From Massilia sp. WG5 (GTDB lineage: Bacteria; Pseudomonadota; Gammaproteobacteria; Burkholderiales; Burkholderiaceae_D): a stretch of DNA of 64,000 nt. The stretch lies in contig NZ_CP012640.2 of the NCBI RefSeq assembly GCF_001412595.2, forward strand, positions 4,588,001 to 4,652,000, read 5' to 3'. The notes below the pieces were generated by a model. The model was not told the origin of the DNA and did not search any database. It saw only the letters and a list, made by a program, of their open reading frames with translations. The first letter of the stretch is position 1; every line of letters starts with the position of its first letter. The position numbers and the translations under genes are program-made. This document shows positions 3,816-16,800 of the stretch, one piece after another.

Positions 3816-3894
<79 letters not shown>

Positions 3895-3935
3895 ACTGGT
3901 ATGAAACTTGAAACTGCGTGCTGAGGGAGAAAACT

Positions 3936-4014
<79 letters not shown>

Positions 4015-9953: not shown

Positions 9954-10661
9954 ATGACCCGACACGCCGCGCTGGCGCTTGCCTTGTGCTGTTTCATGCT
10001 GCCGCCGGCCGGCGCCCAGGAATTGAATCTCGCCTCGCAGCTGCTGGAGGGCGGGACCGGCATCTTCGTGATCGGCGCCTTGTCGGTGCTGGCGCTGGCG
10101 GTGGCTTTCGAACGCCTGGCGAACTTCCGCGCCGCGAAAGTCGCGCCGCAGGCGCTGGCCGACGAGGCGCTCGGCCTGTGGCGCGCCGGCGATTTCCATG
10201 CGCTGGCCGAGCGCGCCGGCACGGACCGCAGCAGCCTGGCGCGCGTGCTCGAGTTCATGGCCGGGCATCCGCGCCTGCCGGTCGAAGCATTGTCGGCGCG
10301 CGCCGCGGAAATCGCATCGACGGAGCTGCGCCTGCAGCAGCAGAAGGCGTATGCGCTGAACGTGGTCGCCACCATCGCGCCCATCGTCGGCCTGCTCGGC
10401 ACCGTGGTCGGCATGATCGAAGCCTTCCACGTGATCGCCTTTAACGGCATGGGCGATCCGACCCTGCTGGCGGGCGGAATCTCGAAGGCCCTGGTCAACA
10501 CGGCGGCCGGGCTGTCGGTGGCCTTGCCCTCGCTGGCGATGCACCACTTCTTCCGCAACCGCATGGTCAACATCGGCATCACGCTGGAACGCCAGCTGGG
10601 CCGCCTGCTGGACGAAGTGCGCGCACGGGAAGACAAGCGGGAGACGCACCATGCACATTGA
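9954..10661 (+). CDS. MotA/TolQ/ExbB proton channel family protein
   Basis: 235 residues. A cleavable signal peptide (residues 1-21, ending AGAQ) precedes TM1 (about 34-54), a cytoplasmic loop, TM2 (134-156, with PIVGLLGTVVGM) and TM3 (175-198, GGISKALVNTAAGLSVALP). TM2 and TM3 carry the family signature, including Thr150 and Thr183 at the places of the ExbB channel threonines. AAGGA at 9942-9946 is the ribosome site. ExbB pentamers with ExbD use the proton gradient to drive TonB-type proteins. It is first of four overlapping genes (exbB-like, exbD-like and two TonB-like paralogs), so it probably powers those two proteins. Confidence 0.92.
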   Translation: MTRHAALALALCCFMLPPAGAQELNLASQLLEGGTGIFVIGALSVLALAVAFERLANFRAAKVAPQALADEALGLWRAGDFHALAERAGTDRSSLARVLEFMAGHPRLPVEALSARAAEIASTELRLQQQKAYALNVVATIAPIVGLLGTVVGMIEAFHVIAFNGMGDPTLLAGGISKALVNTAAGLSVALPSLAMHHFFRNRMVNIGITLERQLGRLLDEVRAREDKRETHHAH

Positions 10662-11076
10662 TCTCGGCGACGACGAGCAGCCCGAGATCGGCCTGATCGC
10701 GCTGATCGACTGCATCTTCTTTTTGCTGATGTTCTTCATGGTCGCGACCTCGTTCAAGCAGAAGGAAACGCAGCACAAGGACAAGGCCATCCCGATCACG
10801 CTGCCGCGCTCCTCCGCCACGCTCGACCTGCTTGATGCCGCGCCCGATCCGCTGGTGATCCGGGTCGACCGCGCGGGCCAGGTGGCGATCGGCGAGGACA
10901 AGCTGTCGGTCGAGGCCCTGCATGCACGTCTGTCGGGCGAGGCGCATGCGCATCCTGGCCGGCCGGTGCGCATCGAGGGCGATGGCAATGCTTCTTACCA
11001 GTCCATCGTCCATGTGCTCGACCTGTGTCAGTTCGAAGGCCTGACCAATATCGCGATGCGTGCGCGGCGGCAGTAA
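10651..11076 (+). CDS. ExbD/TolR family biopolymer transport protein
   Basis: 141 residues, overlapping the ExbB-like gene by 11 bases. A short acidic N-terminus is followed by the single membrane helix GLIALIDCIFFLLMFFMVAT (14-33), with Asp20 at the place of the protonatable ExbD Asp25. The periplasmic domain (about 60-141) has DPLVIRVDRAGQVAIGEDKL and HVLDLCQFEGLTNIAMRA, the usual ExbD/TolR fold. The next gene starts on the base after its stop, so the operon is translationally coupled. Confidence 0.93.
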   Translation: MHIDLGDDEQPEIGLIALIDCIFFLLMFFMVATSFKQKETQHKDKAIPITLPRSSATLDLLDAAPDPLVIRVDRAGQVAIGEDKLSVEALHARLSGEAHAHPGRPVRIEGDGNASYQSIVHVLDLCQFEGLTNIAMRARRQ

Positions 11077-12552
11077 ATGAATGCCGACGCGACTTCCCGG
11101 CTGGACGGTCCGAGCATGGTCGAGCCGTGGCGACACCGATCCTGGCTGCTCGCATCGCTGGCGGCGCACGGCATGCTCGCGGCCAGCCTTTACACGGCCG
11201 GCCCTGTACACGTTGCCATCAAGCGCGACGACGGCTTGCGCGCGCAGGTCGCGCAGTCGCTGCAGCACACGGAGGAGCGCCAGATGCGGCGCGAGCTGCG
11301 CACGATGGAGGAAATCCGCGATGCGCTGGCGGAAAGCGCGGGCCAAGCCGGCGGCGAAGGAAAGGGCGGCACGGACACCGCCAGGTCGCCCGATCCCGCT
11401 GCGCGGGCGCGTGAATTGGCCCGGCAGATCGAGCAAGTGCAGCGAAAGATCCGTGCCACCGAGATGGCGCGCCTGCTGCGCATCCCCGAGGCCGAAGCCC
11501 TCAAGCGCGTGCAGCGCGAGGAGGCGCGCAGGCCCAGGCCCGCGCCGCCGAAGCACGCAAGCCCGGAAGTCCAGGTGGCCCGGCTGGCGCAACAGGCCAG
11601 GGCCGCCCTGGCGCAGCGCCGCGCGCAATTGCTGGCGCAGCAGCAGGGTGTCGCCATCAAGCCGGAGACCGCAGTCAAGCCGGAGACCGGAGAACTGAAG
11701 CCAGGCCGGCCGCAAGGTGGCAAGGCCGGCCAGGGACCGGGTACGGGCAAGTCGCCCGGCCAGGGTGGCCAGGGGCAAGGCAATGGCCAGATGAGCGGCC
11801 AGGGCGGCCAGGGCGGACGGCCAGGGGGCAAGGGCATCGTACAGAACTCGGCCTCGCGCGGCAGCAAGGTCGAGGCCCTGGTCAGCGGCCTTGCACTGGG
11901 TGCGCCCGGCGCGATCACGGGCAGCAGCATCGACATGTCGAGCAATGCCTTCAGCGACTCCCGCAGCTTCGGCGCGTTCCTGGAACCGCCGCCGGTCGAC
12001 GCCGCGGCCATGCGCATCGGCCACGGCCGCACGATCGGCGCCGGCGGCGCCTACGCCAACCGCATCTTTCTCGATACCTGGTATGTGATCGGCCCTTTCG
12101 AAGGCGCCGGCCATGACAGCCAGAACGCGATCTATCCGCCCGAACGCGGCGTGGACCTCGACGCGGTCTATTACGGCAAGAACGACCTGCCGGTGCGCTG
12201 GACCTTCCAGCAGGACGCGCGCTACCCGTCGATACCGCTGCCGCGCGCCGAGAACGCCGTGTATTACGCCTACGCCGAGGTCGAGGTCGACCGCGACATG
12301 GACCTGTGGGTGTGGATCGGCGGCGACGACGATACCAAGATGTGGTTCAACGACCGCCTGGTCTGGCTCAGCGGCGATGGCATTGATAAGCCCTGGTACC
12401 GCCAGCCGTTCATGACGCTGCCCGAGATGCGCACCCTGAACCTCACCGAAGGCCAGCGCCGGCTGCACTTCAACAAGGGGCGCAACAGCATCCTGCTCAA
12501 GTTGTACAACGGAGTGAACCTGATGTTCTATTCGGTGGTGCTGTCCAGGTGA
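11077..12552 (+). CDS. TonB-like N-terminal anchor fused to coiled coil, Gly-rich linker and PA14-like beta-sandwich (paralog A)
   Basis: 491 residues. The single N-terminal membrane helix has the TonB energy-coupling motif S-x3-H (Ser27-His31, LASLAAHGMLAASLYTAG). Residues about 50-215 are charged helix, probably coiled coil, with TEMARLLRIPEAEALKRV. Residues about 225-265 are a Gly/Gln-rich linker (GQGGQGQGNGQ). The C-terminal part (about 320-491) is a beta-sandwich like PA14 and glycoside-hydrolase accessory domains: TWYVIGPFEG, VYYGKNDLPVRW, DLWVWIGGDDDTKMWFNDRL and FNKGRNSILLKLYNGV. No TonB C-terminal domain is seen. Directly after the ExbD-like gene and paralogous to the next gene, so probably an inner-membrane protein energised by ExbBD that reaches across the periplasm. 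Its ligand (glycan or protein) is unknown. Confidence 0.8.
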   Translation: MNADATSRLDGPSMVEPWRHRSWLLASLAAHGMLAASLYTAGPVHVAIKRDDGLRAQVAQSLQHTEERQMRRELRTMEEIRDALAESAGQAGGEGKGGTDTARSPDPAARARELARQIEQVQRKIRATEMARLLRIPEAEALKRVQREEARRPRPAPPKHASPEVQVARLAQQARAALAQRRAQLLAQQQGVAIKPETAVKPETGELKPGRPQGGKAGQGPGTGKSPGQGGQGQGNGQMSGQGGQGGRPGGKGIVQNSASRGSKVEALVSGLALGAPGAITGSSIDMSSNAFSDSRSFGAFLEPPPVDAAAMRIGHGRTIGAGGAYANRIFLDTWYVIGPFEGAGHDSQNAIYPPERGVDLDAVYYGKNDLPVRWTFQQDARYPSIPLPRAENAVYYAYAEVEVDRDMDLWVWIGGDDDTKMWFNDRLVWLSGDGIDKPWYRQPFMTLPEMRTLNLTEGQRRLHFNKGRNSILLKLYNGVNLMFYSVVLSR

Positions 12553-13889
12553 CCATGTTCGACCAGGTCCGGCGTTGCCCATTCCTGTCGCTGTCGCTCG
12601 TGGCGCATGCAACGCTGCTCGGCGTGCTTTACGTGGGCGCATATCGCGTCGAGCTGGACCGGCAGCGCATCCAGCGCAGCCGGGAGCAGCCATCGGTCGA
12701 AGCCGGCAAGCGGCTGATGGAACGGGCGCGCCTCGAAAAGCGCGTGCGCGACATGGCGCGGATCAAGTCCCGGCTCGAATCAGGGGCGGCTGACAAGGAC
12801 GACGACGTGCAGTTCAGCGCGCAGCCCAGGACGCCGGAAGAACTACTCAAGGAAGCCAGGGAGCTGTCCCGCAAGATCGACGAGATCGAGCGTGACGCCC
12901 GCGCCGAACGACTGGCGAAACTGCTCCACATCCCGAAGCAGGAAGCGCTTGAAAAGCTCGCGCAGATGCGCAAGCCGGAAGAGCCGGCCGGCGCCCAACC
13001 CGGCAAGCCAGTCGATGCGACGGCGAAGATCGAGCAGCTCGAAGCAAAGGCACGCGACGCGCTGGAACGGCGCGGCCGGCAACTGGAGCAGCAGCAGGAC
13101 GGTATGCGCGTGGCGGCAAGCGGATCACGCGGCGGCGGACAAGGCGGGCAGCTTGGCGGCCGCCGCCCGGGCCCGGAAAGCCCCGGCGGCGCGTCCATGT
13201 CGTCCGTGCTGCGGGTGATCGATGCATTCATCAGTTCCGGTGGGCGGGGCGTGGGGACGCGGGCCAATATCGTAGCGGGCAGCCACGACGACGTTGATCA
13301 AAGCGTCGTGCGCATTCCCGAGGTCCCCGCCGGCGCCATGGTCAAAGGCACGGGGCGCATCATCGGTCCCGGCGGCCCTTATGCCAGCCGCGTCTACATC
13401 AATCGCTGGTACCTGATCGGCCCCTTCGACCGCAGGCACGGCGACGCGCAATTGCCGGATGCGCCCGATCCGCCCGAGCAGGCCGTGGTCCTGGACGCCG
13501 CCTATCGCGGCAAAGACGGTCGCCTGCTCAGGTGGGAATACGTCGACTCGGCAAGCTATCCCCTGATTCCCCCACAGCCCGCCGAGGACGCCGTGTATTA
13601 CGGCTATACCGAGCTGATGATGGACAGGGAACGGGACCTGACGATCTGGGTCGGCGCCCACGACGACGCGCAGCTGTGGCTCAACGACAGGCTGGTCTGG
13701 CGCGGCAGGAATGTGGCCAAGGCGCGGTTCTACAGGGAGGTCAATGACACGGGCAATACCCATGGCCGCGATTACAACTTCAGCGAGGGCAAGCGCGTCG
13801 TGCACCTCAGGCAGGGCCGCAACAAGCTGTTCTTCAAGCTGTCGAACGGCGTGGGCGCCCTGTTTTTTTCGCTGGTGCTGACGAAGTGA
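12549..13889 (+). CDS. TonB-like N-terminal anchor fused to coiled coil and PA14-like beta-sandwich (paralog B)
   Basis: 446 residues. GTG 12549 overlaps the previous stop (GTGA); ATG 12555 is two codons further. From GTG, the N-terminus has RRCPF and then S-x3-H at Ser16-His20 (SLSLVAHATLLGVLYVGA), the same positions as E. coli TonB. Residues about 33-190 are charged helix with ERLAKLLHIPKQEALEKL, matching a segment of paralog A. A short Gly-rich stretch (GSRGGGQGGQLGG) follows, then the sandwich domain from about 275: GPGGPYASRVYINRWYLIGP, DLTIWVGAHDDAQLWLNDRL and LRQGRNKLFFKLSNGVGALF. It ends the four-gene operon. A and B could form a heteromeric TonB-like rod. Function unknown. Confidence 0.8.
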   Translation: MTMFDQVRRCPFLSLSLVAHATLLGVLYVGAYRVELDRQRIQRSREQPSVEAGKRLMERARLEKRVRDMARIKSRLESGAADKDDDVQFSAQPRTPEELLKEARELSRKIDEIERDARAERLAKLLHIPKQEALEKLAQMRKPEEPAGAQPGKPVDATAKIEQLEAKARDALERRGRQLEQQQDGMRVAASGSRGGGQGGQLGGRRPGPESPGGASMSSVLRVIDAFISSGGRGVGTRANIVAGSHDDVDQSVVRIPEVPAGAMVKGTGRIIGPGGPYASRVYINRWYLIGPFDRRHGDAQLPDAPDPPEQAVVLDAAYRGKDGRLLRWEYVDSASYPLIPPQPAEDAVYYGYTELMMDRERDLTIWVGAHDDAQLWLNDRLVWRGRNVAKARFYREVNDTGNTHGRDYNFSEGKRVVHLRQGRNKLFFKLSNGVGALFFSLVLTK

Positions 13890-15722: not shown

Positions 15723-15883
15723 TATCCGCTAAATGGCCAGCGGCGTCGAAGCCCGGCCGCACGGCTGCTCGACCGTCAAGGACGCTGCCATTTGTCCTAC
15801 AAGCTTACGTGATGCAACGTACCGAGTGCAGAGCTCGTCCGGTGGTCTACTGGACCCAGGCAATGAACGAACAGGAGGGTCTT

Positions 15884-16363
15884 ATGGAAAAGAAGCACCT
15901 CATTATTCCTGCGCTGCTGACTGCACTGCTGGGCGCCAGCGCTCCGGGTTTTGCCCAGAGCCATTATGACGGCGACCGCGACGGCTACGGCCAGCGCGAC
16001 CGCAGCGACCGCGGCGATCGTGGCAACCGCGATTACCGCAGCGATCGCAACGACCGTAACGATCGCGGCGACCGTCGCGAGGACCGCCGGGACGGCTACC
16101 AGGCCCGTGGCGGCGGCCGCTACGGCAATGAGGGCTGGGGTGGCGACGAGCGCCGCTGGAGCGGTGCGGGCCCGGAGCACAGTTTCCGCCGCGGCGACCG
16201 CCTGCCGGAACGTTACCGCAATCACCAGTACGTGGTGAACAACTATCGAGAACACCATTTGCGACCTCCGCCGAGGGGCTATCACTGGGTGCAAACGGGT
16301 GGCGACTATGTGCTGGCGGCGATTGCCAGCGGCGTGATCGCAGACCTGATCATCAATCATTGA
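15884..16363 (+). CDS. RcnB-like periplasmic protein with Asp/Arg-rich repeats
   Basis: 159 residues from ATG 15884, which has AGGAGG five bases upstream; the open frame extends to 15809 without a comparable site. Signal peptide MEKKHLIIPALLTALLGASA. The region at residues about 27-70 is built of DR, DRG and DRN repeats (RDRSDRGDRGNRD) and is probably disordered. The C-terminus has the RcnB domain: GDRLPERYR, YVVNNYREHHLRPPPRGYHW and GDYVLAAIASGVIADLI. RcnB helps control nickel and cobalt in E. coli, but most family members are uncharacterised. A GC hairpin lies 18 bases after the stop. Confidence 0.8.
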   Translation: MEKKHLIIPALLTALLGASAPGFAQSHYDGDRDGYGQRDRSDRGDRGNRDYRSDRNDRNDRGDRREDRRDGYQARGGGRYGNEGWGGDERRWSGAGPEHSFRRGDRLPERYRNHQYVVNNYREHHLRPPPRGYHWVQTGGDYVLAAIASGVIADLIINH

Positions 16364-16380
16364 GGTCGATGAAATGAAGC

Positions 16381-16404
16381 GCAGGCCACCCCCGGGTGGC
16401 CTGC
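16381..16404 (+). other. Perfect GC-rich hairpin between RcnB-like and DUF5329 genes
   Basis: GCAGGCCACCC, CC, GGGTGGCCTGC: eleven-base arms without mismatch (the innermost pairs cannot all form across a two-base loop). No T-run follows, and it stands 9 bases before the GGAGG of the next gene. It may stabilise the upstream transcript or attenuate the downstream gene. Confidence 0.55.
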
Positions 16405-16422
16405 TGCATATTCGGAGGACGC

Positions 16423-16800
16423 ATGCACTTTGGACGCACATCGATTGCCCTGTTCGTCGCCGGCGCCCTGTGCGTGGGCGCGCCCGCGCGGGCGCAGGAT
16501 GCCCAGGCGCGCCAGGAAATCGCGCACCTGCTCGACTTCGTCGCCCAGTCCGGCTGCCAGTTCAATCGCAATGGCAGCTGGCACGACAGCAAGGCGGCGC
16601 GCGACCACCTGCAGGACAAATACGACTATTTGCAGCGCCGCCATCTGGTGCCCGACACCAGGGCCTTCATCGAACGCGCGGCGTCGGAAAGCAGTTTCAG
16701 CCACAAGCCCTACCACGTGCGCTGCGCCAATGGGCAGGAGATCACCAGCGCGCAATGGCTGAATGCCGAGCTGGAGCGGTACCGGGCCGGCACACGCTGA
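16423..16800 (+). CDS. DUF5329 family secreted protein
   Basis: 125 residues from ATG 16423, with GGAGG at 16414-16418; an upstream ATG at 16396 lies inside the preceding hairpin. Signal peptide MHFGRTSIALFVAGALCVGA ends around ARAQ. The mature helix-rich domain, EIAHLLDFVAQSGCQFNRNG with HLQDKYDYLQRR and FIERAASESSFSHKPYHVRC, has the conserved paired cysteines and the YxxRC-type ending of DUF5329. Function unknown, probably periplasmic. A strong bidirectional terminator follows. Confidence 0.75.
   Translation: MHFGRTSIALFVAGALCVGAPARAQDAQARQEIAHLLDFVAQSGCQFNRNGSWHDSKAARDHLQDKYDYLQRRHLVPDTRAFIERAASESSFSHKPYHVRCANGQEITSAQWLNAELERYRAGTR

What the first reader, a model, noticed from the sequence alone, without database searches (positions are those of the whole stretch)
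9954..13889. Candidate undescribed ExbB/ExbD-powered system with two TonB-like proteins ending in PA14-like sandwiches
Seen: four overlapping genes: ExbB-like (signal peptide, three membrane helices), ExbD-like (Asp20 in its helix), then two paralogs with one N-terminal membrane helix, long charged helix, Gly-rich linker and a C-terminal domain with WYxIGPF, IGGDDDTKMWFNDRL and GRNSILLKLYNG. Known: ExbBD normally power TonB, whose C-domain contacts outer-membrane receptors. Here that C-domain is replaced by a sandwich related to PA14-like carbohydrate/protein binding domains. Inference: a proton-driven machine that pulls on, opens or remodels an envelope polymer or surface protein. I know no named system with this architecture.
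Basis: partly seen in the sequence, partly recalled or inferred. Interest (0 to 1): 0.78.

Follow-up and report, generated by a model that had tools for sequence, protein, structure and literature searches.

The report
Ton-like motor with sugar-binding-like tip
A rare four-gene set in soil bacteria seems to join a proton-driven cell-envelope motor of the TonB/TolA kind to pulling arms that end in a domain resembling sugar-binding modules instead of the usual TonB tip, a combination for which I found no published description.

Summary
Window 9954-13889 carries exbB, exbD and two paralogs (Tn1, Tn2), tightly packed on one strand. ExbB and ExbD are genuine (Pfam 1e-23, 8e-28). Tn1/Tn2 match no family above a cut-off, yet each has one N-terminal membrane helix with the Ser-x3-His core of the TonB/TolA 'SHLS' motor-docking motif (41 of 41 aligned rows; 2 of 217 control segments), then long helices, a Gly-rich linker and a beta-rich C-domain. 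Structure prediction with Foldseek, and profile comparison, put that C-domain nearest PA14 and GH2-type sugar-binding sandwiches, though weakly.

exbB-exbD-tn is inherited as a unit: the same 22 of 62 genus genomes hold both parts, and 35 of 38 public loci have both motor genes just upstream. It is rare: mainly Oxalobacteraceae and Pelomonas, plus one Cellvibrionaceae MAG.

Best reading: a proton-powered trans-envelope force transducer whose tip was swapped. A 2025 paper described the same swap with a vWA tip, so this is a new variant of a known kind. The tip's target is unknown; neighbours differ between lineages, though peptidases and glycosidases recur.

The parts
9954..10661 (+). exbB-like gene (MotA/TolQ/ExbB proton-channel subunit): N-terminal signal-like segment and three membrane helices (by eye), Ser44, Thr150, Thr183, Pro192
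   Evidence: ORF; Pfam MotA_ExbB 1.1e-23; one search aligns with solved TolQ/ExbB; S44, T150, T183 invariant in 16 rows, P192 in at least 90%
10651..11076 (+). exbD-like gene (ExbD/TolR subunit) with Asp20
   Evidence: Pfam ExbD 8.3e-28; alignment with solved ExbD/TolR; D20 invariant in 7 rows
11077..12552 (+). Tn1: proposed force transducer, TM helix (S27-x3-H31-x6-L38-x3-G42), charged helical region, Gly-rich linker, C-terminal domain about residues 305-491
   Evidence: only weak, unrelated Pfam/NCBIfam matches, none in PADLOC; not modelled itself
12549..13889 (+). Tn2: paralogous transducer, TM helix (S16-x3-H20-x6-L27), helices 11-78, 96-126, 130-140, 154-183, low-confidence stretch about 184-280, beta-rich domain about 281-446
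   Evidence: AlphaFold2, mean pLDDT 73.4
11989..12549 (+). C-terminal domain of Tn1, with the DDD motif
   Evidence: row of A3; family-level profile
13317..13886 (+). C-terminal domain of Tn2 with about 24 residues of linker (first Asp of DDD replaced by His)
   Evidence: pLDDT 77.7, pTM 0.77; Foldseek best E 4.8e-4

Best explanation
The operon encodes a dedicated trans-envelope force-transduction machine that works like Ton and Tol. ExbB and ExbD form a proton channel/motor in the inner membrane. Tn1 and Tn2 dock on ExbB by their N-terminal membrane helix, cross the periplasm with a long helical rod and a flexible Gly-rich linker, and present a PA14/GH2-N-like beta-sandwich where TonB and TolA carry their own tip domain. 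Proton flow would move or tension the rod, so the tip pulls on whatever it binds near the outer membrane. Shown here: gene linkage, motor signature residues, the core of the docking motif, predicted architecture. Indicated but weak: the fold class of the tip. Inferred: that Tn proteins bind this motor, that force is transmitted, and that the tip binds a glycan or glycosylated ligand (about 0.4) rather than a protein surface (about 0.4). Where both tip types occur they may serve two ligands with one motor.
For: Motor. Docking motif: S-x3-H in 41 of 41 full-length rows, L at +7 in 35 of 41. The rows had been picked with that pattern, but of 42 candidates only L053, whose N-terminus is in another frame, was dropped, and L034, L039, L025 and L027, outside the pattern screen, show it by eye. 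At a matched hydrophobicity cut-off 40 of 40 passing Tn rows against 2 of 217 control segments have S-x3-H, and 0 of 217 the longer form (at the stricter cut-off 1 of 119; at the laxest 6 of 285 and 1 of 285). SHLS contacts ExbB/TolQ TM1 in cryo-EM (PMC12905483, passages). Unit inheritance: the same 22 of 62 genus genomes have ExbB at E<=1e-50 and the C-domain, 40 have neither; 35 of 38 loci have exbB and exbD just upstream. Transducers apart from the motor occur in genomes that keep it: an uncultured Massilia MAG (L052 alone, L067 complete) and G056. Architecture. Tip: the 50 Foldseek hits shown (of 1,490 at E<=10; 9 at E<=0.001) are nearly all glycosidases, with the PA14 lectin Cea1A and a CBM35; hhalign 70% probability to PA14, 23% to GH2_N, 1% to ExbD as control. 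Other MotA_ExbB (8 places, this one included) and TonB_C (6 places) genes exist in the genome.
Against: The last Ser of SHLS is not kept (Gly in 35 of 41), and the window's ExbB TM1 has no Trp (read), though TonB/TolA contacts are said to involve one. No complex could be modelled. Foldseek query TM-scores are only about 0.3-0.45 with rmsd mostly 5-8 A, and the output does not say which domain of the large enzymes matched. The hhalign match covers 33 columns. The only PDB sequence-profile hits were lipocalin Blc chains (E 0.0025 and 0.049). In the window's Tn2 the first Asp of the PA14-like stretch is His. No constant partner gene marks a substrate.
Confidence: 0.68

Rival explanations
1. A TonB-type import energiser: the tip contacts a subset of outer-membrane transporters or their cargo, as FusB does with ferredoxin, and the system feeds nutrient uptake (glycans, glycopeptides or proteins) with periplasmic processing.
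For: Hydrolase genes sit beside the module in several lineages: M16 peptidase in three Pelomonas loci and one beta-proteobacterial MAG (L039, L061, L065 by Pfam; L056 by its shared cluster), S41 in two Duganella, M28 in Rugamonas, glycosidases in L040, L056, L066. FusB, a TonB homolog, energises import by binding its protein substrate (PMC7593965, title and abstract start in a listing). Patchy distribution fits an accessory uptake trait.
Against: TonB-dependent receptor genes were found in 6 of 38 loci (7 genes; BLAST from four examples against mechanically called genes), never as constant members; one more lies beside the module in L027 by eye. TonB_C is absent. Hydrolase enrichment was not tested against a background.
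Confidence: 0.3
2. A Tol-like envelope-maintenance system: the tip binds peptidoglycan, LPS or another envelope glycan or lipoprotein and stabilises or remodels the outer membrane.
For: Helical rod resembles that of gamma-proteobacterial TolA (TolA from PMC12204202); weak NCBIfam TolA matches in 2 of 41 members by one model (best 7.4e-6) and 1 of 41 by another, with 1 of 41 TonB, perhaps from helical composition; ExbB and ExbD score best with TolQ and TolR among NCBIfam models.
Against: No tolB/pal/cpoB recognised beside the module in the window or among the nearest two genes on each side in 25 loci (by eye; not searched by profile); absent from 40 of 62 genus genomes, unlike a core envelope system.
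Confidence: 0.2
3. Tn1/Tn2 do not use this motor as force transducers; they are membrane-anchored periplasmic binding proteins that happen to be co-transcribed with ExbBD.
For: No direct interaction evidence; solo Tn copies exist (L052; G056).
Against: SHLS-type core in all 41 rows against 2 of 217 controls; identical genome sets in the genus.
Confidence: 0.12
4. A defence system of the Zorya type (ZorAB motor plus effectors).
For: MotA/ExbB-type motor only.
Against: No PADLOC hit at E<=0.01 for any of the four proteins; no effector-like gene noticed beside the operon in the window (by eye).
Confidence: 0.02

Closest known systems
vWA-tipped force transducers beside tolQR-like motors (Williams-Jones et al. 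2025, PMC12204202; section 8 read)
   Same: TonB/TolA-like topology, SHLS-bearing membrane helix in many, motor genes adjacent, C-terminal domain unrelated to TonB/TolA, function unknown
   Different: Tip is a vWA fold there and PA14/GH2-type here; that family is reported from several phyla, in the PVC group often with a TPR gene and a pair of tolR-like genes; this one was found in a few proteobacterial genera, with one exbD and no constant extra gene seen
TonB-ExbB-ExbD (Ton system), including TonB paralogs HasB and FusB
   Same: ExbB/ExbD motor, S-x3-H-x6-L membrane helix, periplasm-spanning linker
   Different: No TonB_C domain; helical rod and Gly-rich linker instead of a Pro-rich one; no constant TonB-dependent receptor
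TolQ-TolR-TolA (Tol-Pal)
   Same: Motor family, SHLS-type helix, helical middle region as in gamma-proteobacterial TolA
   Different: No TolB/Pal/CpoB recognised next to it (by eye); different tip; patchy rather than core
PA14 domain (Pfam PF07691) and PA14 lectins such as MpPA14 (PMC8092209, passages read)
   Same: Beta-rich domain; family's DDD aligned with PA14's SDDG, the place where PA14 lectins hold Ca2+ by a DcisD pair
   Different: No Pfam PA14 hit; weak structural match; WYxIGPF and GRN motifs; register of the Asp pair uncertain
Generic ion transporter A subunits with N-terminal appendages such as DUF2341 (PMC12505986, passages)
   Same: Extra domains of unknown function attached to ExbB/TolQ-class motors
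   Different: There the appendage is on the A subunit; here it sits on a separate transducer

Membership tests
Ton system (TonB) | ExbB and ExbD motor subunits | tested here: met
Ton system (TonB) | SHLS motif in the N-terminal membrane helix | tested here: inconclusive
   S-x3-H 41/41, L 35/41, last Ser replaced by Gly in 35/41
Ton system (TonB) | TonB C-terminal domain (PF03544) | tested here: not met
   Not among Pfam matches up to E=1 for Tn1 or Tn2
Ton system (TonB) | Energises TonB-dependent receptors | not testable with these tools
   Receptor genes seen in 6 of 38 loci
Tol-Pal (TolA) | tolB, pal, cpoB in the operon | tested here: inconclusive
   None recognised by eye in the window or in the nearest two genes on each side of 25 loci; no profile search made
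vWA force transducers (2025) | vWA C-terminal fold | tested here: not met
   The 50 Foldseek hits shown are glycosidases, Cea1A and CBM35; no vWA match in Pfam
vWA force transducers (2025) | SHLS helix, periplasmic linker, adjacent motor | tested here: met
   with the last SHLS Ser not kept
PA14 domain PF07691 | Score above the Pfam cut-off | tested here: not met
   No PA14 hit in 13 C-domains or in both full proteins
PA14 lectin | PA14 beta-sandwich fold | tested here: inconclusive
   Cea1A at E 2.5e-3, TM 0.41/0.38, rmsd 8; hhalign 70% over 33 columns
PA14 lectin | Two consecutive Asp (DcisD) binding Ca2+ and sugar | tested here: inconclusive
   DDD in 36 of 41 rows; HDD in the window's Tn2; cis bond and Ca2+ not testable
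Zorya defence | Match to PADLOC models | tested here: not met

The most novel reading that the evidence does not exclude
A proton-powered glycan-pulling machine: an ExbBD motor that works through a lectin instead of a TonB/TolA tip, gripping a polysaccharide or glycosylated cargo at the inner face of the outer membrane and drawing it inward or tensioning it, with two lectin types (Tn1, Tn2) sharing one motor.
Probability: 0.23. Interest if true: 0.8.

Novelty: new variant of a known kind. Interest (0 to 1): 0.55.

Why it matters
TonB and TolA, the best-studied transducers driven by this motor, grip their targets by strand addition through their own C-terminal domain (PMC12204202 and PMC12905483, passages). 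A further unrelated tip, after vWA, would suggest that motor plus rod is a general chassis onto which bacteria bolt different end-effectors. A sugar-binding-like tip would point to direct mechanical work on glycans, and the compact three-gene unit makes that testable in laboratory strains of Massilia or Duganella.

Tried and rejected
TonB_C and defence-system membership: no supporting hits. Weak TolA/TonB scores in 1-2 of 41 members were not taken as membership. Lipocalin: the only PDB profile hits (E 0.0073; 0.0025); set aside because no lipocalin is among the 50 Foldseek hits shown of 1,490, which is not a full exclusion. The G659 hit in the phylum survey (E 9.4e-6) covers only profile positions 194-279, the linker region, and was not counted as a homolog. 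Constant partner gene: none seen; 16 of the 20 genus regions have the module at the nth-rnfB site, which says nothing about function, and flanks differ elsewhere. TonB-dependent receptor as partner: 6 of 38 loci. A promoter/terminator pattern scan gave nothing above shuffles. My notebook says 36/38 loci with motor genes; the recount is 35 with both, 2 with ExbD only (L034; L068 at a contig edge), 1 with neither (L052). Loci L009-L028 and L032-L069 overlap in origin (for example L009 and L059), so the two sets are not independent. The first control for the docking motif used a stricter hydrophobicity cut-off than 13 of the 41 Tn rows reach; it was redone at matched cut-offs.

Full report
What is there. 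The window is part of a 6.2 Mb genome (G000:C1:4588001-4652000) whose nearest named loci are Massilia. At 9954-13889 four genes lie tightly packed on the + strand: exbB (235 aa), exbD (141 aa), Tn1 (491 aa) and Tn2 (446 aa). exbB/exbD overlap by 11 bases, exbD/Tn1 abut, Tn1/Tn2 overlap by 4. ExbB and ExbD are clear family members. Asp20 of ExbD aligns with that of solved ExbD/TolR. Thr150 and Thr183 of ExbB align with the threonines of solved TolQ/ExbB, named essential there by PMC12905483 (passages); they are invariant in 16 homologs, as is Ser44. Tn1 and Tn2 have only weak, unrelated matches in Pfam and NCBIfam and none in PADLOC.

Docking motif. In TonB and TolA the membrane helix carries Ser-x3-His-x6-Leu-x3-Ser, which contacts ExbB/TolQ. 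In an alignment of 41 full-length rows (window pair included) Ser16 and His20 (Tn2 numbering) are invariant and the Leu position is Leu in 35, Cys in 4, Ile and Val in one each. The last Ser is mostly Gly (35 of 41). Selection must be told: candidates were found by a C-domain pattern (42 segments) and kept if they had S-x3-H in a hydrophobic stretch; the one dropped, L053, has its N-terminus in another frame. L034, L039, L025 and L027, which the C-domain pattern had missed or which lie in another set, also show it. As control I took distinct N-terminal hydrophobic segments of other genes in the same loci. At a 19-residue hydropathy of 1.1 or more, 40 of 41 Tn rows pass and all 40 have S-x3-H in that segment; of 217 controls 2 have it and none the longer form. 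At 0.9 the controls are 6 of 285 and 1 of 285; at 1.6, 1 of 119 and 0. The controls include related genes and are not independent.

Architecture and tip. AlphaFold2 of Tn2 on the 41-row alignment (mean pLDDT 73.4) gives a helix 11-78 running out of the membrane, helices 96-126, 130-140 and 154-183, mostly low confidence about 184-280, and a beta-rich C-domain from about 281. The C-domain of Tn2 alone (43 rows, pLDDT 77.7, pTM 0.77) finds in the PDB mostly glycosidases (GH2 beta-glucuronidases first, GH3 and GH31 enzymes), plus the PA14/Flo5-like lectin Cea1A and a CBM35 module (50 of 1,490 hits shown; best E 4.8e-4; 9 at E<=0.001; query TM about 0.3-0.45). The output does not name the matched domain of these enzymes; that it is their sugar-binding or PA14 sandwich is my inference. 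Profile-profile comparison gives 70% probability and E 3.9e-5 over 33 columns to PA14 domains from the same order, 23% to GH2_N, 1% to ExbD as a negative control. The aligned stretch puts the family's DDD on PA14's SDDG. PA14 lectins hold sugar through a Ca2+ on a DcisD pair (PMC8092209, passages). DDD is present in 36 of 41 rows. In 4 of the 5 operons with both types (window, L058, L059, L060; not L041) the Tn2 copy has lost the first Asp, so the paralogs may have split roles. Other invariant residues include Trp287, Glu355, Asn379, Trp384, Arg424, Asn425 and Asn433.

Distribution. In the genus, 22 of 62 genomes have the ExbB at E<=1e-50 and the same 22 have the C-domain at E<=0.001, the window's genome included; I compared the lists by eye. 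The C-domain is in 12 of 294 family genomes (4 of 44 genera) and 1 of 369 class genomes, the window's own; the full protein in 3 of 300 order genomes, all of the genus; and of 398 phylum genomes two of the genus plus the weak linker-only G659. The named-genome scan returned 38 loci in Massilia/Telluria, Duganella, Pseudoduganella, Rugamonas, Pelomonas, some Burkholderiales-type MAGs and one Cellvibrionaceae MAG. It was driven by two peptide patterns, so distant members would be missed. In 35 of 38 both motor genes lie just upstream. Tn1 and Tn2 C-domains are split by a branch of support 100/99 (midpoint root, some long branches). By best tblastn query 4 of 38 loci (L041, L058, L059, L060) and the window carry one of each; the rest show one type.

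Neighbourhood. Of 20 genus regions fetched, 16 have the module next to or within about 1.3 kb of an nth-rnfB pair; the names Obg, ProB, Nth, RnfB and PhaZ are mine by eye. The same site is seen in 13 of the 38 named loci. Among the other 25, a hydrolase gene on the same strand stands beside the module or one gene away in 9: M16 peptidase in Pelomonas L039, L061 and, by cluster, L056, and in MAG L065; S41 in Duganella L044 and L050; M28 in Rugamonas L063; a melibiase and, by cluster, a GH2 enzyme in L040; GH43 in L066; L056 also has a GH2 gene downstream. L054 has a DUF885 gene. No background rate was measured, so this is a lead only.

Reading. The simplest account is a Ton/Tol-like proton-driven transducer with a swapped tip. 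Gene linkage, motor residues and docking core are shown; the tip fold is indicated; binding, force and ligand are inferred. Its closest relative in print is the vWA-tipped class of Williams-Jones et al. 2025 (PMC12204202; abstract, passages and section 8 read), which says further such systems remain to be discovered. I found no paper describing a PA14-like or lectin-like tip on an ExbBD-linked transducer in seven searches of the held library, which lacks most subscription papers and holds no bioRxiv preprints; in the F. succinogenes paper PA14 and ExbB are listed as separate proteins (PMC6851124, passages).

Noticed in passing
L039, L061 and L056 (upstream of exbB), L065:3843-6776: An M16 (insulinase-type) peptidase gene sits directly or one gene upstream of exbB in Pelomonas and, in another sequence cluster, in a beta-proteobacterial MAG, recalling the M16-TonB pairing of ferredoxin uptake (that pairing is recalled).
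   Followed up: partly
L044:5918-6970 and L050:5711-6961: Peptidase S41 gene immediately upstream of exbB in two Duganella genomes (Pfam).
   Followed up: partly
L024 (G056:C1 about 675642-675752) and L004: In G056 a 37-column remnant of a transducer C-domain (E 5.3e-4) lies beside the motor, while a full Tn2-type gene lies about 1.2 Mb away next to parA/parB-like genes (by eye).
   Followed up: partly
L034:7730-9546: Pelomonas sp. Root1217 has a second copy with an exbD lacking its 5' part and no exbB found, besides a complete one at L039.
   Followed up: partly
A2 and A3 profiles against PDB: Unexpected weak profile match of the C-domain to lipocalin Blc chains (best E 0.0025); possibly chance, not excluded.
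   Followed up: partly
window 3818-4014: Two tRNA-Pro(cgg) genes in tandem on the - strand.
   Followed up: no
window 15881-16797: An RcnB-like gene and a DUF5329 gene downstream of the nth-rnfB pair.
   Followed up: no
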